DNA from: CBDCVA01 sp965222935 [NCBI: Candidatus Latescibacterota bacterium]
Lineage (GTDB): Bacteria > Latescibacterota > CBDCVA01
Direction of reading: 5' to 3'
DNA: 64,000 bases
NCBI GenBank assembly: GCA_965222935.1
Contig: CBDCVA010000001.1
Location: 496,001 to 560,000 of the forward strand
In this document: positions 11,377 to 61,807 of the stretch, piece by piece
Layout of the letters: every line of letters begins with the position of its first letter
How positions within the stretch are numbered: position 1 is the stretch's first letter
Notes under the pieces: generated by a model
Told to the model about the DNA's origin: nothing
Database searches by the model: none
The model's input: the letters and a program-made list of their open reading frames with translations, nothing else
Made by a program: the position numbers and the translations under genes

Positions 11377-12762
11377 ATGAGCCCGTCTACCATCGCGACG
11401 TCCGCGCCCGCCGCAGGCGCAGCCGGCTTGGAGGCATTGCCGCACTTCTCCGGCTGGTGGATCATTCCGTTCGGCCTTTTGCTCTTCGCCATCGCTGCCG
11501 TGCCCTTCGTCAATCGGCACTGGTGGGAGCGTCATTACCCCAAGGTGTCTTACGCTCTGGGCCTGATCGTCGTGGTTTACTACCTGACCGCTATAAGCGG
11601 TCCTGAGTACCACGGCCACGGCCATCACAAGCTTTTGCATACCCTCGTCGAGTACTACGCCTTTATTGCGCTTTTAGCGTCGCTCTTCGTCGTGGCTGGC
11701 GGCATTCATCTCGACTTGCGCCGGCCGGCCACGCCGGGCACGAACGTCATCATCCTGCTCATCGGCTCGGTGATCGCCAACTTCCTGGGCACCACGGGCG
11801 CCTCAATGCTGCTCATCAGGCCCTTTCTGCGGATCAACCAGTGGCGCGTCAAGGCCTACCACGTCGTCTTCTTCATCTTCCTCGTTTCCAACATCGGCGG
11901 CGCGCTCACCCCCATCGGCGATCCACCGCTGTTCATGGGCTACCTCAAGGGAGTACCCTTCTTCTGGGTGGCGCCCAAGGTCTGGCACATCTGGCTCTTT
12001 ACGCTGGCGATCATCCTGTTCATCTTCTACGTCATCGATCGCATCCAGTACGCCAAGGTGGCGGGCGCCGAACCCGAGACACCGCCTCAACAAGAGGGGG
12101 AAAGCGCGGTCGGAGGCGCGAAGAACTTCGCTTTCCTGGCTCTCATTTTAGTCCTCGTGCTCATTCAGAAAGCCCCGGCGCTCCGACAGTATGGTGAGAC
12201 AATGGTCACCGTGGCGGCGGCGACGGCGCAGCTCTTCATCGCTATCGTAGCTTACAAGCTGGCTGACCGTCGGGCCCTTGAGCGGAATGATTTCAATTTC
12301 GAGCCCATCAGAGAGGTGGCCATCCTCTTCGCGGGCATCTTCGCCACGATGATCCCCGCCCTCGACTACCTCGAGCAGAACGCCCGCTCAATTGGCATTG
12401 AGACCTATAGTCAGTTCTACTGGGGAACGGGCGTGCTCAGCGCCATCCTGGACAATACGCCGACGTACCTCAATTTCCTCTCCGCCGCGTTCGGGATCGC
12501 GAATCTTTCGGTAGACAACGCCGAACACATGGCCCGTTTCCTGGTCGAGTATTGGCAATACCTCCAGGCGATCAGCGTCAGCGCCGTCTTCTTCGGGGCC
12601 GTCACCTACATCGGTAATGGACCCAATTTCATGGTCAAGACGATCGCCGAGCATCAGGGCGCCCCCTGTCCATCGTTCGTCGGTTACGTCGTGAAGTACG
12701 CGCTGCCGATCCTGATCCCCGTCTTCTTCGTCGTCTGGGCGATTTACTTCCGGGGGGCGTGA
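11377..12762 (+). CDS. NhaD/CitMHS-type Na+/H+ antiporter inside the nuo operon
   Basis: 461 residues with about 12 hydrophobic segments, of the ion transporter superfamily. Two conserved half-helix loops are clear: SNIGGALTPIGDPPLFMGYL near residue 170 and LSAILDNTPTYLNF near residue 350, both typical of NhaD-like sodium:proton antiporters (Pfam CitMHS_2). A His-rich loop (YHGHGHHKLLH, about residues 78-88) may sense pH or bind metal. The gene starts 6 bases after nuoD and ends 6 bases before nuoE, so it is co-transcribed with complex I. This suggests Na+/H+ exchange linked to respiration. It is not a core complex I subunit. Confidence 0.88.
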   Translation: MSPSTIATSAPAAGAAGLEALPHFSGWWIIPFGLLLFAIAAVPFVNRHWWERHYPKVSYALGLIVVVYYLTAISGPEYHGHGHHKLLHTLVEYYAFIALLASLFVVAGGIHLDLRRPATPGTNVIILLIGSVIANFLGTTGASMLLIRPFLRINQWRVKAYHVVFFIFLVSNIGGALTPIGDPPLFMGYLKGVPFFWVAPKVWHIWLFTLAIILFIFYVIDRIQYAKVAGAEPETPPQQEGESAVGGAKNFAFLALILVLVLIQKAPALRQYGETMVTVAAATAQLFIAIVAYKLADRRALERNDFNFEPIREVAILFAGIFATMIPALDYLEQNARSIGIETYSQFYWGTGVLSAILDNTPTYLNFLSAAFGIANLSVDNAEHMARFLVEYWQYLQAISVSAVFFGAVTYIGNGPNFMVKTIAEHQGAPCPSFVGYVVKYALPILIPVFFVVWAIYFRGA

Positions 12763-37708: not shown

Positions 37709-39133
37709 ATGGCAGAGATCAAAACCCCCGACGACGTTCTGGCCTTCGCGCGGGATAACGGCGCCCAGGTGCTCGACGTGAAGTTCATGGATTTTCCGGG
37801 CTTGTGGCAACATTTCTCGGTCCCCATCGAGGCGCTCGAGGTCGAGAGCTTCGAGGACGGCTTCGGTTTCGACGGATCGTCCATCCGCGGGTGGCAGGCC
37901 ATCAACGAAAGCGACATGCTCGTCGTCCCCGATGCGACAACCGCCTTCATGGACCCATTCACGGCGATTCCCACGCTCACGATGATCTGCGACATCATGG
38001 ACCCGATCACCCGCGAGCGCTACACTCGCGACCCGCGGACGGTCGCTAGGAAAGCCGAGAACTACCTCCAGGCGAGCGGCATCGGCGATACCGCCTATTT
38101 CGGCCCCGAGGCGGAATTCTTCATCTTCGACGACATCCGCTTCGATCAGAACCACCACGAGGGCTACTACTACGTGGATTCACAGGAGGGGCGTTGGAAC
38201 AGCGGGCGCGAGGAGGGGCCGAACCTGGGCTACAAGCCGCGGTACAAGGAGGGCTATTTCCCCGTACCGCCCAGCGACTCGCTCCAGGACATGCGAAGCG
38301 AGATGATGCTGACGCTCATCAAGCTCGGGGTCCCGGTGGAGGCGCAGCACCACGAGGTGTCCACGGGTGGCCAGGGCGAGATCGACCTGGGCTTTTCGCC
38401 GCTGGTGCGTATGGCGGACAACCTGCTCATCTACAAGTACGTGGTCAAGAACGTTGCCCACCGTCACGGGAAGACGGCGACGTTCATGCCCAAGCCGATC
38501 TTCGAAGACAATGGCTCTGGGATGCACACCCATCAGAGCATCTGGAAGGATGGCAAGCCGCTGTTCGCGGGCTCCGGCTATGCGGGTCTTTCCGAGATGG
38601 CCATGTATTACATCGGCGGTCTGCTCAAGCACGCATCGGCGCTTCTGGCCTTCCTGGCACCGACGACGAATAGCTATAAGCGGTTGGTCCCCGGCTTCGA
38701 GGCACCGGTCAACCTGGCGTACAGCCAGCGGAACCGCTCGGCGGCGATCCGCATCCCGGTGTATTCGACAAGCCCGAGGGCGAAGCGGGTGGAGTTCCGT
38801 CCGCCTGACGGCGCGTGCAACCCGTACCTGGCTTTCGGCGCCATGCTCATGGCGGGCTTGGACGGCATCCAGAACAAAATCGACCCGGGCGATCCGCTCG
38901 ATAAGGACATGTACGAGTTGGAGCCCGAGGAGCTGGAAGCCGTGCCCTCGACACCAGCCTCTCTGGAGGGGGCGCTCGAGGCACTGCGCGAGGACCACGA
39001 ATTTCTCATGCAGGGCGACGTCTTCACCGAGGACGTCATCGACACGTGGATCCGGTACAAGATGGAGAACGAGGTGGACGCGCTGCGGCTGCGGCCTCAT
39101 CCGTGGGAGTTCGCGCTCTACTACGACTGCTAA
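37709..39133 (+). CDS. glnA: Glutamine synthetase type I
   Basis: 474 residues, normal for GSI. It makes glutamine from glutamate, ammonia and ATP. The beta-Grasp start, [12 protein letters not shown] (about residue 51), metal ligands in [12 protein letters not shown], the [10 protein letters not shown] loop (about 268), and [16 protein letters not shown] are all intact. The adenylylation Tyr is present as Tyr402 ([10 protein letters not shown]), so control by GlnE is possible (GSI-beta). It ends YYDC-stop, and its 3' end is echoed by a decayed copy before amt2. Confidence 0.96.
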
Positions 39134-39163
39134 ATGCGGGAGCCAATAAGGAGGAATCCATCC

Positions 39164-40525
39164 ATGCTCGTACGAACCCGGCAAGCGCGCGTTTATACCT
39201 TGCTCGCCCTCGGGCTGATAGCCTTGCTGCCAGCGCTTGGGTGGGCTGAGGAGGCTCCGACCGTCGAGAGTAATGCCGCGGCCGTTGAGAAGGTGCAAAC
39301 CCACGCCAACTATCTATGGACCCTGGTGGCCGCCTTCCTGGTATTCTTCATGCAGCCGGGATTCGCCATGGTCGAAAGCGGCTTCACACGAGCGAAGAAC
39401 GCTGCAAACATCATGATGAAAAATCTGATGGATTTCAGCGTTGGCAGCCTCTGCTTCTGGGCCGTGGGGTTTGGCCTCATGTTTGGCGCCAGTACGGGCT
39501 GGTTCGGCAAAACGGGGTTCTTCTTCAGCGATTTCGGTAAGGACCAGGATGACTGGCTCTTCGCCTTCTGGCTCTTTCAGGTGGTCTTCGCCGGTACCGC
39601 GGCGACCATCTGTTCGGGGGCCATGGCCGGGCGGACCAAATTCAGCGGCTACTTGATCTATGCGATCGTCGTTAGCGCCTTCATCTACCCCGTCTTTGGA
39701 AACTGGGCCTGGGGAGGGCTGTACGAGGAGAGTAAGGGCTGGCTAGAAGGGCTTGGCTTCATCGACTTCGCTGGCTCGACCGTGGTACACTCGGTCGGCG
39801 CCTGGGTCGCTCTGGCCGGCACGGTGGTCCTGGGTCCACGTCTCGGCAAGTACAGCCGGGAGGGCAAGCCGCTCGCCATTCCTGGACACAGCATGACCAT
39901 GGCGGCGCTCGGCGTCTTCATCCTGTGGTTCGGCTGGTTTGGGTTCAACGCCGGCAGTACCACGACGGCGGATACCACGATTGCCCGCATCGCCGTTAAC
40001 ACCAACCTGGCGGCCGCTGCGGGTGCGGTGTTTGCCATGCTCGTGACCTGGATGAAGTTCAAGAGCCCCGACGTGGGCCTCTCGCTCAACGGTGCCCTGG
40101 CCGGCCTCGTGGCCATCACGGCCCCGTGCGCCAACGTATCACCGTTGAGCGCGGTGATCATTGGCGCTCTGGCCGGAATCATCGTGGTCTTTTCGGTTCT
40201 CTTCTTCGAGCGCATCAAGGTTGACGACCCCGTTGGCGCTGTCTCCGTGCACGGCACCTGCGGCGCCTGGGGGACGCTCGCGGCGGCCATCTTTAACGAA
40301 GCCGGCTTCTTCGTCGGCTTCGGCGTCCAGGTTCTGGGTGTGGTGGTGGCCTTCGTCTGGGCCTTTGGCATCGGCTACATCGTCTTCACCCTCATCAAGT
40401 GGACGATCGGCCTGCGGGTCTCCGAAGAAGAGGAACTGGAGGGCCTGGACCTCTCCGAGCACCGCACCGAGACCTATCCCGACTTTGTCTTGGCCCATCC
40501 CGGTGCGGCAAGAAGCTCTGGATAG
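39164..40525 (+). CDS. amt: Ammonium transporter (first copy)
   Basis: 453 residues from ATG 39164, preceded by AAGGAGG; the earlier in-frame ATG lies right at the glnA stop. A cleavable signal peptide (LLALGLIALLPALGWA) is followed by 11 transmembrane helices. The pore histidines are present in VHSVGAWVAL and SVHGTCGAWG. It imports ammonium at low concentration and is blocked by GlnK. The cytoplasmic tail is acidic (EEEELEGLDLSEHRTETYPD). It differs enough from the second copy to suggest divergence of function. Confidence 0.94.
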   Translation: MLVRTRQARVYTLLALGLIALLPALGWAEEAPTVESNAAAVEKVQTHANYLWTLVAAFLVFFMQPGFAMVESGFTRAKNAANIMMKNLMDFSVGSLCFWAVGFGLMFGASTGWFGKTGFFFSDFGKDQDDWLFAFWLFQVVFAGTAATICSGAMAGRTKFSGYLIYAIVVSAFIYPVFGNWAWGGLYEESKGWLEGLGFIDFAGSTVVHSVGAWVALAGTVVLGPRLGKYSREGKPLAIPGHSMTMAALGVFILWFGWFGFNAGSTTTADTTIARIAVNTNLAAAAGAVFAMLVTWMKFKSPDVGLSLNGALAGLVAITAPCANVSPLSAVIIGALAGIIVVFSVLFFERIKVDDPVGAVSVHGTCGAWGTLAAAIFNEAGFFVGFGVQVLGVVVAFVWAFGIGYIVFTLIKWTIGLRVSEEEELEGLDLSEHRTETYPDFVLAHPGAARSSG

Positions 40526-40594
40526 GGCTCATGGGGAAACCCTCAGCCACCGGAATGCGCCGGAGCGGAACGCTCTTAAGGATGGATGTCCGAT

Positions 40595-40748
40595 GATCCT
40601 GTACAGTCTCACGCGTTCGTGCTACAGGACGACGGCTTCACCGAGGGCTTCATCGACAGGTGAGTCGCGTACAAGGTGGAAAACGAGGTCGATGTCCTCA
40701 GGCCTATACCGCGTCCCTGGGAGTCCGCCCTCTACTCCCACTGTTGGA
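40595..40748 (+). pseudogene. Decayed 3' end of a second glnA copy
   Basis: The frame reads SHAFVLQDDGFTEGFIDR-stop-VAYKVENEVDVLR, then RPWESALYSHCW. It aligns with the end of the intact GlnA ([44 protein letters not shown]). The TGA at 40661 replaces the Trp codon (TGG to TGA), a small deletion follows VLR, and the stop is lost. After a spacer of about 90 bases, the amt2 leader (GATGAGGAGGAAT) resembles the amt1 leader. The 335-base gap between the two amt genes thus preserves part of an ancestral glnA-amt duplication. Confidence 0.85.
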
Positions 40749-40860
40749 TCCCGGTGAGCGGGTACAGTGCCACCCATGTGCTGCGCCCGCTCGCCCATCC
40801 ACTGTGAAGACCACCCCGAGCGCTCGCGCCGTTGCGGGGCCGATGAGGAGGAATAATCCG

Positions 40861-42240
40861 ATGCTCGTGCGCACCCGCCGATTCAGAGGATTACTGCTGG
40901 CCCTGTCAGCGCTTCTGACGCCAGCCGTGGCCTTCGCCGCCGGGGACCCTAGCGGTGAAGCCACCTTTTCGGATACGGTCGAGGGCCTCAAGCTCTCGAT
41001 CGACGTCACCTGGACGCTCGTGGCCGCGTTCCTGGTCTTCTTCATGCAGGCCGGGTTTGCATTCTTGGGCGCCGGCTTCCTGCGCGCCAAGAATACGCTC
41101 AACTACATGACTAAGAGCTATATGGACTTCTCCGCGGCCGCCGTGAGTTTCTGGGCGATCGGCTTCGCCTTCATGTTCGGCGGCAGCGGTATCGCGTCAG
41201 GCCTCGAATCAGGCGGAAGCTTCATCGGAACGTCCGGCTTCTTCTTGGCGGGTGATTCCTATGACGTTCAGACCTGCGCGTACTGGCTCTTCCAGATGGT
41301 CTTTGCCGCCACGGCAGCGACCATCGTGGCCGGCGCTGTCGCCGAGCGGATGAAGTTCCAGGCGTATCTCCTTTACAGCTTCATCATCTGCGCCATCATC
41401 TACCCGATTTATGGCCATTGGGTCTGGGGCGGCGGATGGCTCTCGAGCTTGCCGTATGGGGCTGGGGCCGTTGATTTCGCTGGCAGCGGCGTCGTCCACG
41501 CTGTCGGCGGTCTGGTGGCGCTGGCGGGGGCCTGGATGGTTGGGCCTCGCATGGGCAAGTTCAACCGGGATGGCACCCCCAACGCCATCCCCGGCCACAA
41601 CATGGTCTACGTCATCATCGGCACGTTCATCCTCTTCTTCGGCTGGTTCGGGTTCAACTCCGGCAGCACGACTGCGGCGACCGACCTGCGTATCAGCGTC
41701 ATCGCTGTCAACACATTCCTGGCCGGTTCCGTCGGTGCTGTGGTCGTCATGTACTGGTCGTACTTCACCACGGGCAAAGCCGACATCTTGCTTGCTTGCA
41801 ACGGTGCGCTTGCGGGGCTCGTCGCCATCACAGCGCCCTGCGCCTACGTGGCCCCCTGGGCTGCCGTTGTGATAGGCGCGTCCGCTTCGCTGCTCATGCG
41901 CCTCAGCATCTGGTTCGTCGAGTACGTGCTCAAGGTGGACGATCCGGTCGGAGCTGTCAGCGTCCACGGAGCCAACGGCCTGTGGGGTCTCCTCTGCGTC
42001 GGGATCTTTGCGGATGGCACTTACGGCGGCGTGAAGGGGCTGATCGTCGGCGACACTGGCCAGATCGTGGCGCAGCTCATCTCATGCGCTACCGTTTTCG
42101 TCTGGGCCTTCGGCTTGGGCTTGTTGATGTTCGCCGTACTCAAGGGCATTGTAGGTATCCGCGTCTCGCCCGAAGAAGAGGCCGATGGACTGGATATCTT
42201 CGAGCACGGCATCGAGTGCTATCCCGCTAAGGGGAGTTGA
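40861..42240 (+). CDS. amt: Ammonium transporter (second copy)
   Basis: 459 residues. A signal peptide (LLALSALLTPAVAFAAG) precedes 11 helices; pore histidines are in VHAVGGLVAL and SVHGANGLWG. GAGFLRAKN stands where the first copy has ESGFTRAKN. The first residues MLVRTRR match those of the first copy (MLVRTRQ), supporting common descent by duplication. GAGGAGG precedes the ATG. Longer in-frame starts back to 40660 read through the glnA remnant in another frame and are rejected. Confidence 0.93.
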   Translation: MLVRTRRFRGLLLALSALLTPAVAFAAGDPSGEATFSDTVEGLKLSIDVTWTLVAAFLVFFMQAGFAFLGAGFLRAKNTLNYMTKSYMDFSAAAVSFWAIGFAFMFGGSGIASGLESGGSFIGTSGFFLAGDSYDVQTCAYWLFQMVFAATAATIVAGAVAERMKFQAYLLYSFIICAIIYPIYGHWVWGGGWLSSLPYGAGAVDFAGSGVVHAVGGLVALAGAWMVGPRMGKFNRDGTPNAIPGHNMVYVIIGTFILFFGWFGFNSGSTTAATDLRISVIAVNTFLAGSVGAVVVMYWSYFTTGKADILLACNGALAGLVAITAPCAYVAPWAAVVIGASASLLMRLSIWFVEYVLKVDDPVGAVSVHGANGLWGLLCVGIFADGTYGGVKGLIVGDTGQIVAQLISCATVFVWAFGLGLLMFAVLKGIVGIRVSPEEEADGLDIFEHGIECYPAKGS

Positions 42241-53294: not shown

Positions 53295-54308
53295 GATGCA
53301 GCTTCTAGTCGCTACGGGCCAAAGGTCGGTTTCCGCATCAGCGCCGCATCGTACCCATTAACAGTGGATATCGCGTATCAACCGGCGGTCGTCGGACCGG
53401 CGCTTCCCAGCCTTGCGTCATGCCAAAAGCAGCAGGCTCCCCACGGTCCAACTGCACTATTAACCGCGTACAGCCCGCCGCACGCGGCCACCGCCCTAGC
53501 GACGGAGAGCCGGCCATTTCTCCGTCCCACCCCAGGTCTCGGACGAGTTGATGATGGTTAGCCGCATTGCCCTTGGTTTCTTCCTCTGCTTCCGCGTACT
53601 TTGCATCCTTGGAGTGCCAGTCACTTGTATCGGAGCGGACCCATGTTAGACGACGCCAATTCGTTTGGCGTCCCGCCACATGTAAGCTGATCCCTCGGGA
53701 ACCGCAAGGCCCTTTCTACCGATTGCTCTCGGCGGTCGCTAGCCGAAGCTCAGTTCCTCGCTTATTCAACTATGTCGGAAGACCCGTCACGCGCCGCGGC
53801 ATGGCTCGTCCTACAGAGCGTCCCCGGACTGAGGCCGAAATGGATCACGACGATTCACGGGACCAACCGCGCCCATGAGCGCACGCTGTGCTTCTGGGCT
53901 GATTGGCACCCCAAGAGCGTCCGCCGATCCTCTGCCTGCGCGGCGACGAGCGACTGCTTCGAGGACCTGCCATCGCTCAGGTGACGATGGCCAGAGACGT
54001 CGGCGTTCACGACGGGTTGCATCCTCTTAAGGCACCGTCCCTCGTAGGTTTTCCTTGACAGTTGATCGAAGGTACTCCAACATTAGGCTGATTCTATTCC
54101 GTTTGAGCAGCTTTTAAGGGCACCGCGTTTCAGGTCAGCTTCGTCGCCCTTGGGGCGGCCGCGTTCAGTTCGACCCGAGAGCGAGCGTGGGTCTGATCTG
54201 TCCGCCTGACGCGGTGTCCCTTCCTTTTGCTGCTCAGGAGCGACTCGGGGTCGGATAGGATACGGCGCGCTGGATTGTGCCAGCGTCTCCCGTTCCCGGC
54301 GGGTGGGC
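53295..54308. other. 1-kb region without a supported intact gene
   Basis: Open frames here are short, overlap on both strands and lack ribosome-binding sites. One feature is a hairpin: GACGCCAA (53652-53659) and TTGGCGTC (53665-53672) with a 5-base loop, but no T-tract. A possible gene remnant is listed separately (53772). The region may be a decayed locus. Confidence 0.45.
53772..53984 (+). pseudogene. Possible 5' remnant of a DprA-like gene
   Basis: The ORF opens with MSEDPSRAAAWLVLQSVPGL, which recalls the N-terminal helix-hairpin-helix start of DprA/Smf proteins (xxAWLALxxVPGLGP). After that the similarity is lost in every frame, and the Rossmann core is absent. The call rests on about 20 residues, so it is tentative. 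Confidence 0.3.
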
Positions 54309-54902
54309 CTAGGGTTTCTCGCTCCAAAGTGCTTCTAGCGCGGCGTTTAGCTCCGGCCAGTCATTCTTCAGGTCGAACGCGCGGTCGGCGTAACGGATGA
54401 TCCCTGCCTTGTCCACCAGGAAGACCGAGCGTTTGGCGAAGCGCCACAGGGGCTCGCCCGCCACCCCGTACGCGTTGACGATGGCGCCGTCTAGGTCGCT
54501 AAGGACGGGGTAGTGAAGATCGAGCTGCTCGGCGAAGACCTGATGGCTCCAGGGTGTGTCGGTGCTGATGGCCCAGACCAGTGTATCGTGCTCCAGAAAC
54601 TTCTGGAGGTCGGCCTCGAAGGTGGCCAGCTCGAGCCTTCACCCCCCGGTGAAGTCGGCTACGTAGAAGGCCAGCAGCACGTGGCGCTTACCGCGTTGCT
54701 CGGACAGGCGGAATAGCCCCTCCCTGAAGACGACTCCGCGAGCCGAGTCAGTCCCCCCCGCAGCGAAGTCGGGCGCGAGCTGGCCGACCTCAGGGGGTGC
54801 CCCCGGCGCTGGTTGCTCGGGTAAGCGTGACAGCTCCGCGTGGGTAACACTCATAAGCGCGGCGGCCAATCCCAGGCCGATGTCCCCTGCTTCGACGTGC
54901 AT
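54309..54902 (-). CDS. Peroxiredoxin, candidate selenoprotein (in-frame UGA at the peroxidatic position)
   Basis: 197 residues if UGA is read as Sec. Start ATG 54902 has GGAGGG 5 bases upstream. Residues 38-88 are a peroxiredoxin start: EVGQLAPDF, RLSEQRGKRHVLLAFYVADF, then TGG-U88. Cys is expected at this TxxC position. The frame continues after the UGA (54639-54641) without interruption as RLELATFEADLQKFLEHDTL, SHQVFAEQLDLHYPVLSDLD and RSVFLVDKAGIIRYADRAF to a TAG. No resolving Cys is seen, so it would be 1-Cys type (AhpE/BCP-like). It follows the rhodanese by 25 bases. Alternatives are an inactivating TGC-to-TGA change or a sequencing error. Confidence 0.82.
54591..54608 (-). promoter_or_regulatory. 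Candidate bacterial SECIS hairpin
   Basis: On the transcript, CUCCAGA-AGUU-UCUGGAG forms a perfect 7-bp stem with a tetraloop that has G as its second base. The loop begins 37 bases after the UGA, at the outer edge of the 16-37 base window known for bSECIS elements. It lies within the coding sequence, as expected for bacteria. Confidence 0.6.
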
Positions 54903-54927: not shown

Positions 54928-55749
54928 TTACCCACCTTCGATGGGCAGGTCGGCCCGGTTGCCCCACTCGTTCCAGGACCCAACATAGTTGCGAACCTTC
55001 CGGTAGCCGGCGGAGCGCAGGCTTAAGTACAGGTGCGCGGATCGAGAGCCGACGTGGCAGTACGTCACCAGGTCCTTCTCGTTCGAGGCCCCAGCGGCCT
55101 CAGCGACAGCGTGGATATCCACCTGGTCCTTGAGGCGGCCGGTTGGCTCCACGAGTTGGTTCCACTCGAGCCACTTGGCGCCCGGAATCCGGCCCGCGCG
55201 CGAGCAGCCGAAGGGGACTTGCTGACCTTTGTATTCGCTCTCGCTGCGGCTGTCCAGGATGAGCCAGCCCTGGTCTTCCAGGTGCGCCTGGACCTCATCC
55301 ACCCCGGCGACGCGTTCGGGCTGTGGATCGGGTTCAAAATCACCAGCGGGCCGCCGGACGGGATCGGACGACAGCGGACGGCTCTCGCGATACCACGCTT
55401 GGATGCCGCCGTTGAGGACGCGAACGTTGGAGTGGCCCAGGTGTTCGAGAGCCCAGAAGGTGCGTGCGGCCGGCGGCCCGATGTCCATGTCGTAGACGAC
55501 CACCGTGTCGCCGTGGTTGATCCCAGCCTGCGCGACGGCTGGTCCTAGCTGTCGCGCATATGCGGCGAGGCCCTCGGCCGATGTCTCGGCGATCTGGTAG
55601 CCCGCAAGGGGAAGGTGAACCGCGCCGGGCAGATGCGCGGCGGCGTACTCTTGTGGATTGCGCGCGTCGGCGATGACGAGGTTGGGGTCTTCCATGTGCT
55701 CTCCGAGCCAGGCAGGATCGACTAGGATTGTCGAGGCTTCGGCCATCAT
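54928..55749 (-). CDS. Sulfurtransferase with two rhodanese domains
   Basis: 273 residues. The N-terminal rhodanese domain is inactive-looking; the C-terminal one has the active-site loop TYCHVGSRSAH (Cys about residue 225). CHVGSRS resembles thiosulfate sulfurtransferases rather than mercaptopyruvate enzymes, which usually have CGSGVTA. It moves sulfane sulfur to cyanide or thiols in the cytoplasm. AAGGAG stands before the ATG pair. With the following peroxiredoxin it may serve sulfur or selenium redox metabolism. Confidence 0.88.
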   Translation of the reverse strand: MMAEASTILVDPAWLGEHMEDPNLVIADARNPQEYAAAHLPGAVHLPLAGYQIAETSAEGLAAYARQLGPAVAQAGINHGDTVVVYDMDIGPPAARTFWALEHLGHSNVRVLNGGIQAWYRESRPLSSDPVRRPAGDFEPDPQPERVAGVDEVQAHLEDQGWLILDSRSESEYKGQQVPFGCSRAGRIPGAKWLEWNQLVEPTGRLKDQVDIHAVAEAAGASNEKDLVTYCHVGSRSAHLYLSLRSAGYRKVRNYVGSWNEWGNRADLPIEGG

Positions 55750-59375: not shown

Positions 59376-60446
59376 CTACTTGTGCGCTCGCCATAAGAGC
59401 ACCAGGCCCAAAGCGGCAAAGACGATGTTTGGGAGCCAGGCCGCAAGTGCCGGCCCGAGCACATGATGCCAGCCCAGCGCTCGACTGATGTGGATGAGGG
59501 AGAGGAAGGCAAAGAAAACCCCGAAGGCGATCGTGATTCCGACGGCCTTGCCCGACGTGCTGCGGCCGCTGGCCAGGGGCGCTCCCACGAGCACGATGAT
59601 GACGTTGGCGATCGGGTAGGCGATCTTGAGTGCCAGGTCCACCAGCCAGCGGGTCGGGTCAGCGCCAATGCGCCGCAGATGCTCCACGTAGGCCCGGAGC
59701 TCGAAGTAGCCCATCTCATTGGGCCGACGCTTGGCGTGGCTGAAATCGTCCGGTCCCAGGCCCAGGTCAACGGGTCCCCGTTGGTCGAAGGGCTCCAGCC
59801 GTTCCACCTCGGTGCCGAAAGTACGGACGCTGCCGCTGAAGAGCCACCAGCCGGTCTCTCCCCAATGCATGGCGTCGGCGGTGACCTTCTCGACCAGCCG
59901 ATGTCCTGCGTAGTGGTCGATTGCGACGCGGCGAGCAATCTCGTCTGCGACGTCGTACTCGCCGACGTAGACGATCCGCCCCCCGCTTGCGCCCAGGTAG
60001 ACGTCGGCCTCGCGCACGCGACGATAATCACTTCGGCTGGTCTGGACGCGTGTGGAGCGGCGACGGACGCTGGATGCGGGCACGACGACCTCGCCGAAGA
60101 TGAGGGTGAACAGGCTCAAGAGCAATCCCGATCGGATGAGCGGCCAGAGAATGCGGTAGAGGCTGATGCCGGAGGCCTTCATCGCGACGAGCTCGTTGGT
60201 ACGTGCCAGGCTTCCCACGGTGAAGACGGCGGCTAAAAGCGCGGAAGCGGGAATGGTGACCACGACCGAGTAGGGCATCGAGTAGAGGTAGAAAAAGCCG
60301 ATGGCGCTTGCCGACATGCCGCGGTCAACGAGAGTGTCGAGCCGCTGGACGAGGTCGGTGAGCATGTAAATGCCCGCGAACCCGACCAGAAAGGCCGCGA
60401 ACCAGGCGAAGAAGCGGCGGATGAGATAACAGTCGAGGGTCTTCAC
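59376..60446 (-). CDS. lptG: LPS export ABC transporter permease LptG
   Basis: 356 residues of the YjgP/YjgQ family. The start is GTG 60446, overlapping the lptF stop by 4 bases; longer versions read through lptF in another frame. TM1 follows LDCYLIRRFFAWFAAFLVGF; the central periplasmic beta-jellyroll domain runs about residues 125-255, and three helices follow. It moves lipopolysaccharide from the inner membrane with LptF and LptB. It shows that the cell has an LPS-type outer membrane. Confidence 0.88.
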   Translation of the reverse strand: MKTLDCYLIRRFFAWFAAFLVGFAGIYMLTDLVQRLDTLVDRGMSASAIGFFYLYSMPYSVVVTIPASALLAAVFTVGSLARTNELVAMKASGISLYRILWPLIRSGLLLSLFTLIFGEVVVPASSVRRRSTRVQTSRSDYRRVREADVYLGASGGRIVYVGEYDVADEIARRVAIDHYAGHRLVEKVTADAMHWGETGWWLFSGSVRTFGTEVERLEPFDQRGPVDLGLGPDDFSHAKRRPNEMGYFELRAYVEHLRRIGADPTRWLVDLALKIAYPIANVIIVLVGAPLASGRSTSGKAVGITIAFGVFFAFLSLIHISRALGWHHVLGPALAAWLPNIVFAALGLVLLWRAHK

Positions 60447-61807
60447 CGGCGGCGAAGGCGGTCTGTGGCCCTGAGCGTAAGGGTGATCCCGATGAGCCCG
60501 ATGAGGATGTTGGGACCCCACATAGCGAGCCAGGGGGCTACGAGAAGACGATCGGCCAGATTCTCCCCGCCTTCCAGGCAGGCCCAGTAGAACAGGAAGA
60601 AGCCGATCGAGATGCCCACGCCGAGGCCGACACCACTGCGCCGCGCGGCCATCCCCAAAGGAGCGCCGATGAGAACGAAGACGAGGCATGCGAACGGGAT
60701 GGAGAATTTCTTTTGAATTTCGACCCTGTATTTGGCGGCCAGCCGGCGGTGGGCCTGGGCACGGTCGAGGTGGCGCTCGACGGCGCCCAGAGTCCGCTCC
60801 GTCTCCTCGAGGGGCGCCAGAGGCCGCCCCGCTGGTAGACCCTCGGTGATGGCCGGGGGAAGGCCGTAGTCGGCCCCAAGGCCGGTGGGCAGATAGCGGT
60901 TTAACAGTTGGCGGACGATGTCCGATGCCGCTTGCTTTTCGAGGTGTTCGGCCGCCTCGTAGCGCTGGACGCGGGACCACATCTGCGCGCTCGTCAGTTC
61001 GCGGTCACTGCGGTAGTGACTTGCCCCGACATCAAGTGCGCGCCCGGGGTCGGAAAGACGGATGACGTGGCGCTTGAAGGCGGTGCGCCGGTACTTGTCA
61101 GGGTAGTGTGGGTCTTGTTCGTGGATCTCGCCATCGAGGAGATCGAGGATCAGTTCCGTCCCGTCGGCCGACATCCGGAGTTTACCGCGGGCTGCGGGAA
61201 CGGTTACCGGATAGAGGGCGTCGCGTTCCTCGAAGATGGTAACGCCGGCGAGTTCGCCGCTATCGGGGTCTACGCGCTCGACGCGCATGACGTAGCCCGG
61301 CAGATCACTCACGAAAAGCCACTCTTTTTGGGTCAACGACAGCGCGGGCTTCAAGCGGTTGATGGCAGTGGTTAGCTCGCGGGCGCGGTGGTTTCCCTCG
61401 GGCAGCAGACGGTCGCTGAAGACGATGAGCACGGCCGTGAGGGCCACCGCGGAGAGCAGCACTGGGCGGACCAGGTCCCACAGGTCCGTGCCCGCTGCCC
61501 TGACGGCGATGATCTCGGCGTCGGCGCTCAGCCTGCCGAAGGCCATCAACGATGCCACTAGGACGGCCATGGGTGCCGCAAGCGCGATGATCCAGGCGTA
61601 GTTGAGCGCGAAAAGCTCAAGGATGACCCACGTTGGCACGGCTTTGCCCAGAATCTGATTGATCACCTGGGTGAGCAGGTCGGCGACTAGGACGAAGCTC
61701 ACCAGGCCGAAGGCCAGACAGAACGGCCGGATGTGTTCCCGCAGGACATAGACCTGGAGCGTACGTGAGGAGCGGCGGCCCAGTCGAGGCGTGATGAATG
61801 CACTCAT
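60443..61807 (-). CDS. lptF: LPS export ABC transporter permease LptF
   Basis: 454 residues. TM1 is LAFGLVSFVLVADLLTQVIN, and AAPMAVLVASLMAFGRLSAD and EIIAVRAAG form the coupling loop region. The jellyroll domain lies around 130-250. An insertion of about 100 residues between 255 and 355 is larger than in E. coli LptF (366 residues) and is charged, possibly helical. The family C-terminus (FSIPFACLVFVLIGAPLGM) is typical. It is the first gene of the lptFG pair; the ATP-binding LptB is not in the window. Confidence 0.87.
   Translation of the reverse strand: MSAFITPRLGRRSSRTLQVYVLREHIRPFCLAFGLVSFVLVADLLTQVINQILGKAVPTWVILELFALNYAWIIALAAPMAVLVASLMAFGRLSADAEIIAVRAAGTDLWDLVRPVLLSAVALTAVLIVFSDRLLPEGNHRARELTTAINRLKPALSLTQKEWLFVSDLPGYVMRVERVDPDSGELAGVTIFEERDALYPVTVPAARGKLRMSADGTELILDLLDGEIHEQDPHYPDKYRRTAFKRHVIRLSDPGRALDVGASHYRSDRELTSAQMWSRVQRYEAAEHLEKQAASDIVRQLLNRYLPTGLGADYGLPPAITEGLPAGRPLAPLEETERTLGAVERHLDRAQAHRRLAAKYRVEIQKKFSIPFACLVFVLIGAPLGMAARRSGVGLGVGISIGFFLFYWACLEGGENLADRLLVAPWLAMWGPNILIGLIGITLTLRATDRLRRR

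What the first reader, a model, noticed from the sequence alone, without database searches (positions are those of the whole stretch)
54309..54902. Peroxiredoxin with UGA exactly at the peroxidatic cysteine: a probable selenoprotein
The only interruption in an otherwise full-length peroxiredoxin is a TGA at the position where the family has its catalytic Cys (TxxC, here TGG-stop). The reading frame continues unbroken for 109 more codons with clear family motifs. A 7-bp hairpin with a G-containing loop begins 37 bases after the UGA. Ordinary gene callers would report an unrelated 115-residue ORF and drop the rest.
Basis: partly seen in the sequence, partly recalled or inferred. Interest (0 to 1): 0.85.

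Follow-up and report, generated by a model that had tools for sequence, protein, structure and literature searches.

The report
Selenocysteine peroxiredoxin read through UGA
This is a peroxide-destroying enzyme gene whose single in-frame stop codon sits exactly on the catalytic residue and most likely encodes selenocysteine; it is a good new member of an already known selenoprotein family, not a new kind of system.

Summary
On the minus strand (54902-54309) lies a 197-residue peroxiredoxin whose only internal stop is a TGA at the peroxidatic position (T85-G86-G87-U88). Pfam AhpC-TSA matches across the TGA at 2.3e-27. Coding signal continues after it, and TGA ends 20 of 37 other ORFs taken as genes, so the code is not generally reassigned.

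In a draw of 301 Chloroflexota genomes, 40 homologous rows from 39 genomes carry TGA at exactly this codon. They keep a hairpin about 16-21 nt after the UGA beyond synonymous expectation (z -8.8; -4.7 with similar rows thinned); 18 Cys rows do not (z -0.1). The window's own stronger hairpin, at +37, fits the published bSECIS limits (37 of 3000 synonymous shuffles do as well), but lies elsewhere; a weaker one (p 0.066) sits at the relatives' place. No genome is held for the window, so its Sec machinery is untested: the main gap.

TxxU peroxiredoxin is a published selenoprotein family. Differences here: valine for the usual active-site proline, and no cysteine in the protein. I call it a new member of a known kind.

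The parts
54309..54902 (-). Peroxiredoxin CDS read through UGA, 197 residues (Sec at 88), stop TAG
   Evidence: GGAGG 6 nt before the ATG seen directly
54639..54641 (-). UGA at the peroxidatic position, read as selenocysteine (predicted)
   Evidence: TGA at the same codon in 40 homologous rows, TGC/TGT in 18
54591..54608 (-). 7-bp hairpin, loop AGUU, 37 nt between UGA and loop, -9.3 kcal/mol: candidate bSECIS at the upper distance limit
   Evidence: limits from PMC13188914
54611..54628 (-). Second candidate: UGGCC-ACCUUCGA-GGCCG, loop 15 nt after UGA, -6.9 kcal/mol, about the place of the relatives' conserved hairpin but without G in the first two loop positions
   Evidence: p 0.066
54928..55749 (-). 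Protein with two rhodanese-domain stretches (sulfurtransferase type), 25 nt upstream and co-directional: probably the same transcript (inference)

Best explanation
A bacterial selenoprotein peroxiredoxin of the TxxU kind. The ribosome, with SelB, Sec-tRNA and a hairpin just after the UGA, inserts selenocysteine at residue 88. The selenolate, held by Thr85 and Arg158, attacks H2O2 or an organic peroxide and is oxidised to selenenic acid. As the protein has no cysteine, an outside thiol or redox protein must reduce it (a 1-Sec cycle). Shown: frame, homology, UGA position, the same UGA in relatives, selection on the relatives' hairpin. Inferred: Sec insertion in this organism, peroxidase activity, roles of Thr85 and Arg158 (from general knowledge of peroxiredoxins), reductant.
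For: Pfam AhpC-TSA 2.3e-27 over residues 39-171, both sides of the UGA; PDB homologues to 5.8e-20, with the Rv2238c chain aligned through its Cys and Arg. This frame has the best codon score of six on both sides of the UGA. TGA is a normal stop elsewhere, 20 of 37 ORFs taken as genes by eye. 40 homologous rows with TGA at this codon and 18 with TGC/TGT (rows L001, L002, L005, L006 and L053, of UxxC/CxxC-like sort, were set aside). Hairpin selection in Sec rows z -8.8 against Cys rows z -0.1; thinned at 70% identity, z -4.7 over 19 Sec rows and -0.2 over 9 Cys rows. tRNA-Sec over the cut-off in 17 of 20 Sec-row genomes. The window hairpin meets the published bSECIS limits, energy taken on the hairpin alone. 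Published TxxU Prx selenoproteins.
Against: No genome held, so no Sec machinery seen for this organism; no tRNA and no Rfam match at gathering score in the window. tRNA-Sec is no contrast: 16 of 20 comparison genomes have it too. Whole-region folding of the window's post-UGA RNA is unremarkable (z 0.25 to -1.6). Under the strict published model 14 of 40 Sec rows (1.97 expected) and 4 of 18 Cys rows (0.98 expected) score, so it hardly separates them; longest-stem means also hardly differ, 5.7 over 40 TGA rows and 5.4 over 23 Cys rows, the five set-aside rows included. The codon score before the UGA (0.105) is below that of each of the 37 genes (lowest 0.13). The window sits on a long branch (1.92), and relatives from its own phylum could not be reached.
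Confidence: 0.88

Rival explanations
1. A pseudogene or assembly/sequencing error: a Cys codon changed to TGA by one substitution, and no functional full-length protein is made.
For: TGC/TGT to TGA is a single change; only one contig is seen; the organism's Sec machinery is untested.
Against: No other stop and no frameshift in 197 codons, coding signal intact after the TGA, the same TGA in 40 homologous rows, a hairpin fitting the bSECIS limits.
Confidence: 0.09
2. UGA is read as another amino acid (codon reassignment or general readthrough), so residue 88 is not selenocysteine.
For: The frame is open beyond UGA; no proof of Sec in this organism.
Against: 20 of 37 ORFs taken as genes end in TGA. 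A scan for TGA-interrupted coding frames listed seven places; this is the only one that I read as one protein crossing TGA (judged by eye, the others being antisense shadows or, at 12760, two neighbouring genes in one frame). UGA sits exactly on the catalytic residue.
Confidence: 0.02
3. UGA is a true stop and an 87-115 residue truncated protein is the product.
For: The ordinary ORF list gives 115 residues.
Against: The product would end before the catalytic residue; the 109 codons downstream carry D115, H120, D136, R158 and R170, invariant in the ten aligned rows, and this frame has the best codon score of six there.
Confidence: 0.01

Closest known systems
Selenoprotein peroxiredoxin, TxxU family (PF00578/COG1225; tables in PMC1088965, PMC2398784, PMC13188914; the review cites the E. 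acidaminophilum enzyme of Sohling 2001, a paper not seen here)
   Same: AhpC/TSA domain by sequence, Thr three before Sec, UGA at the peroxidatic position, post-UGA hairpin.
   Different: Val81 where the review's motif PxxxTxxU has Pro; no cysteine in the protein; far below the NCBIfam PrxU cut-off (48.5 bits against 270).
AhpE-type 1-Cys peroxiredoxin (Rv2238c, PDB 1xvw/1xxu/4x0x; the name AhpE and its 1-Cys class are recalled)
   Same: Among the best solved relatives (4.4e-17); Arg aligned (ANRGTF with AKRSVF); single redox residue.
   Different: Cys instead of Sec; Pro present in the motif (FPLAFTGIC).
Chloroflexota Sec peroxiredoxins found here (for example L023, L025, L031, L035, L045)
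   Same: YVxDFTxGU active site, UGA at the same codon; 33-41% identity over the nine rows aligned.
   Different: Their hairpin is at about +16 to +21, in one large group with a stem GACCGA/UCGGUC; the window's stronger hairpin is at +37. Four relatives (L035, L038, L063, L065) have hairpins at both places.

Membership tests
Selenoprotein peroxiredoxin (TxxU) | AhpC-TSA/Redoxin domain | tested here: met
   PF00578 2.3e-27, PF08534 1.5e-14
Selenoprotein peroxiredoxin (TxxU) | In-frame UGA at the peroxidatic Cys with Thr/Ser at -3 | tested here: met
   T85GGU88; alignment with Cys enzymes. Thr or Ser at -3 also in 38 of 40 Sec rows, Gly in 2
Selenoprotein peroxiredoxin (TxxU) | Homologues with UGA and with Cys at the same place | tested here: met
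   40 TGA and 18 TGC/TGT rows
Selenoprotein peroxiredoxin (TxxU) | Pro at -7 (PxxxTxxU as printed in PMC13188914) | tested here: not met
   Val81; also Val in 29, Pro in 9, Leu in 1, Glu in 1 of 40 Sec rows, Pro in 18 of 18 Cys rows. I treat it as a subclass trait, since TxxU alone is the motif in the family tables
Selenoprotein peroxiredoxin (TxxU) | bSECIS: stem 4-16 bp, loop 3-9 nt, G in first two loop positions, 16-37 nt from UGA, MFE at most -7.5 | tested here: met
   One hit, 7 bp, AGUU, 37 nt, -9.3 for the hairpin alone; at the distance limit; 37 of 3000 synonymous shuffles as good
Selenoprotein peroxiredoxin (TxxU) | bSECIS conserved in place with relatives | tested here: inconclusive
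   The relatives' place holds a weaker hairpin in the window (p 0.066); the +37 place is not generally conserved (z -1.3)
Selenoprotein peroxiredoxin (TxxU) | selA, selB, selD and tRNA-Sec in the same genome | not testable with these tools
   No genome held for the window; no tRNA in the window
NCBIfam PrxU equivalog (NF040737) | Score over the curated cut-off | tested here: not met
   48.5 bits against 270
AhpE-type 1-Cys peroxiredoxin | Single redox residue, no resolving Cys | tested here: met
   No Cys besides position 88
AhpE-type 1-Cys peroxiredoxin | Peroxidase activity and reductant | not testable with these tools
   Needs biochemistry

The most novel reading that the evidence does not exclude
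A distinct 1-Sec peroxiredoxin subclass, VxxxTxxU, in which the usually conserved active-site proline is dispensable once the nucleophile is selenium, spread over Chloroflexota and at least one outer-membraned lineage, and here possibly reduced by persulfide or sulfide made by the adjacent rhodanese.
Probability: 0.2. Interest if true: 0.5.

Novelty: new member of a known kind. Interest (0 to 1): 0.35.

Why it matters
It adds a well-supported selenoprotein that ordinary gene callers truncate, in a lineage that by its LptF/LptG gene is outer-membraned and so probably not Chloroflexota (inference). The comparison also shows that 31 of 40 Sec homologues found here lack the proline that a 2026 review prints as part of the conserved Sec-Prx motif, and that hairpin selection after the UGA can be measured in a simple Sec-versus-Cys test.

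Tried and rejected
Rfam tRNA-Sec as a contrast: 17 of 20 Sec-row genomes against 16 of 20 comparison genomes, so none. By E-value alone all 40 genomes and all 14 control genomes ring (5 controls over the cut-off), so I counted the cut-off only. Of the 20 comparison genomes 18 have a Cys row checked at the codon; G061 and G042 were taken from the list as having no internal stop and were not fetched. Strict bSECIS model as a classifier: 14 of 40 Sec rows and 4 of 18 Cys rows, against 1.97 and 0.98 expected: not discriminating; three of the four Cys hits are one and the same hairpin. Longest stem with loops up to 14 nt: no difference between Sec and Cys rows. Conservation of the +37 hairpin across Sec rows: weak (z -1.3). 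Rhodanese as a conserved neighbour: none found in the loci then held, most of them only 1-3.5 kb. Val/Pro with Sec/Cys as a correlated change: only 3 or 4 independent pairs on supported branches (5 on all), so it cannot be tested. Viral contigs: no relative. Plasmid records: 109 with a match, all under 60% identity, 15 listed, none inspected at the codon. Papers with Latescibacter and selenoprotein, tried on a guess at the host: 2 listed, not read. Structure prediction was not run: the family is clear from sequence. Relatives outside Chloroflexota could not be sought: the one genome-contig scan gave two loci, named Anaerolineaceae and Anaerolineales, with a UxxC Prx-like protein, and these fixed the reachable phylum (for the lineage).

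Two Sec rows also carry an in-frame TAG within the match (L059, L065) and two a second TGA (L038, L042); they were kept in the counts. Tree rows were cut 70 residues before the catalytic position, so some include untranslated upstream letters; sparsely filled columns were dropped by the program.

Full report
Observation. The minus strand at 54902-54309 reads as a 197-residue protein with exactly one internal stop, TGA at codon 88, and a final TAG. The start ATG follows GGAGG by six bases. The TGA is at T-G-G-U, the peroxidatic position. Pfam gives AhpC-TSA 2.3e-27 and Redoxin 1.5e-14 through both sides of the TGA. The best solved relatives are chains named as Bcp homologues and Rv2238c; in Rv2238c a Cys and the Arg of ANRGTF align with residue 88 and R158, while the top chain, 3hjp, has Ser there. 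That Thr, Cys and Arg form the active site is general knowledge of peroxiredoxins.

Coding evidence. The 109 codons after the TGA have GC by codon position 0.67/0.39/0.83, like the 37 long ORFs that I took as genes by eye (0.65/0.46/0.78), and the highest codon score of six frames (0.306; mean of the 37 is 0.215). The part before scores 0.105, below each of the 37 (lowest 0.13) but still the best of its six frames. TGA ends 20 of the 37, TAG 9, TAA 8, so UGA is not generally reassigned. A scan for other TGA-interrupted coding frames listed seven places. I judge the other six by eye to be antisense shadows or, at 12760, two adjacent genes in one frame.

Relatives. No genome is held for the window. 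The one scan of named genomes gave two loci (titles Anaerolineaceae and Anaerolineales) with a different, UxxC-type Prx-like protein; that family belongs to Chloroflexota. From there 301 genomes of the phylum were searched: 287 have some homologue at E 0.001 or better. Of the 30 loci handed out there, 12 have TGA exactly at the codon aligned to 88 and 18 have Cys. The 29 further places that the printed, truncated match list marked with an internal TGA were fetched; 28 have it at this codon, and one (L053) has it three residues before an aligned Cys. That makes 40 Sec rows from 39 genomes and 18 Cys rows; the later Sec rows were picked because they had TGA, so 40:18 is no frequency. L001, L002, L005, L006 and L053 were left out as UxxC or CxxC types. 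tRNA-Sec scored over the Rfam cut-off in 33 of 40 genomes tried: 17 of 20 with Sec rows, 16 of 20 comparison genomes.

Hairpins. The review PMC13188914 (passages read) gives the bSECIS limits: loop 3-9 nt, upper stem 4-16 bp, G in the first two loop positions, 16-37 nt from UGA, MFE at most -7.5. With perfect stems and the energy of the hairpin alone, the window has one hit: 7 bp, loop AGUU, 37 nt, -9.3 kcal/mol; 37 of 3000 synonymous shuffles of the same peptide do as well. Looser searches give 0.034 and 0.037, and folding of longer stretches is unremarkable (z 0.25 to -1.6). In relatives the best hairpin with loop start 12-24 nt after the codon sums to -269.5 kcal/mol over 40 Sec rows against -114.0 expected under synonymous shuffles (z -8.8), and to -32.3 against -31.6 over 18 Cys rows (z -0.1). 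Rows are related, so I thinned them: at 70% identity of the 72 nt, 19 Sec rows give z -4.7 and 9 Cys rows z -0.2. Loops further down show no such signal in Sec rows (z -1.3, 0.8 and -0.7 for +33 to +42, +43 to +52 and +53 to +62). Paired changes are seen by eye: ACCUCCU-UUA-GGGAGGU (L034) and ACGUCCU-UUA-GGGACGU (L051); UGUCCC-AGUUUC-GGGACG (L035) and UGUCUC-ACUUUC-GAGACA (L063). The window at that place has UGGCC-ACCUUCGA-GGCCG, -6.9, p 0.066. Four Sec rows of one clade (L035, L038, L063, L065) have a second, GUU-loop hairpin at +38, in register with the GUU of the window's loop. Because a shared Phe codon supplies the UUU, this may be chance.

Tree. In a tree of 60 rows the window sits on a long branch (1.92); its five nearest rows by path are Sec forms, and the Sec/Cys label needs 5 changes. 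In a 59-row tree built without the columns of residues 81 and 88, Sec/Cys needs 5 changes and loss of Pro 5. Val stands at -7 in 29 of 40 Sec rows and in the window, Pro in 9, Leu and Glu in one each; all 18 Cys rows have Pro. Only 3 or 4 independent supported pairs exist, so a causal link is untested. The review prints the Sec-Prx motif as PxxxTxxU.

Mechanism. Most likely SelB-dependent Sec insertion, then a 1-Sec peroxidase cycle; the protein has no Cys, so the reductant is external. The upstream co-directional rhodanese (54928-55749, gap 25 nt; Pfam 2.8e-39) suggests, without proof, sulfur chemistry in the same transcript; it was not found in the short relative loci.

Host. LptF/LptG at 60443-61807 (8.3e-81) implies an outer membrane, so Chloroflexota is unlikely (from general knowledge); the phylum is not determined here.

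Known status. TxxU Prx is listed as a selenoprotein family in PMC1088965 (43 sequences), PMC2398784, PMC1794560 and PMC13188914 (passages seen). Searches for selenoprotein + Chloroflexi + peroxiredoxin (3 papers), peroxiredoxin + selenocysteine + TxxU (6), selenocysteine-containing peroxiredoxin + bacteria (5), selenocysteine + AhpE (7) and the motif search (41 papers, 8 listed) showed no title or opening abstract on the Val variant; beyond the five papers of which I saw passages (those four and PMC9312934), they were seen as listings only, so absence from print is not shown. The window protein is below the cut-off of each NCBIfam model that it matched (14 up to E 0.1); for the nine relatives cut-offs were not printed.

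Verdict. A probable selenoprotein of a known family (0.88), with the Sec machinery of its own genome still to be seen.

Noticed in passing
54928-55749 (-): Protein with two rhodanese-domain stretches and a Cys in the loop TYCHVGSR (seen) directly upstream of the selenoprotein gene; rhodanese-related sulfurtransferase is itself in a published list of selenoprotein families (PMC9312934 table).
   Followed up: partly
L001 and L002 5001-5393, L006: Prx-like proteins of Anaerolineae MAGs with an in-frame TGA three residues before a Cys (U-L-Q-C), a UxxC selenoprotein type already published.
   Followed up: partly
40 Sec rows against 18 Cys rows: Sec homologues mostly carry Val in place of the active-site Pro (29 of 40); all 18 Cys rows keep Pro.
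   Followed up: partly
60443-61807 and 59376-60980 (-): LptF/LptG permease and, by eye, a second similar-looking permease reading next to it: an outer-membraned organism of undetermined phylum.
   Followed up: no
37709-42240 (+): A glutamine synthetase-like gene followed by two ammonium-transporter-like genes, named by eye from the translations.
   Followed up: no
53295-54308 (-): About 1 kb between the methyltransferase gene and the selenoprotein gene in which only short ORFs are listed (113 and 103 residues); not tested for function.
   Followed up: no
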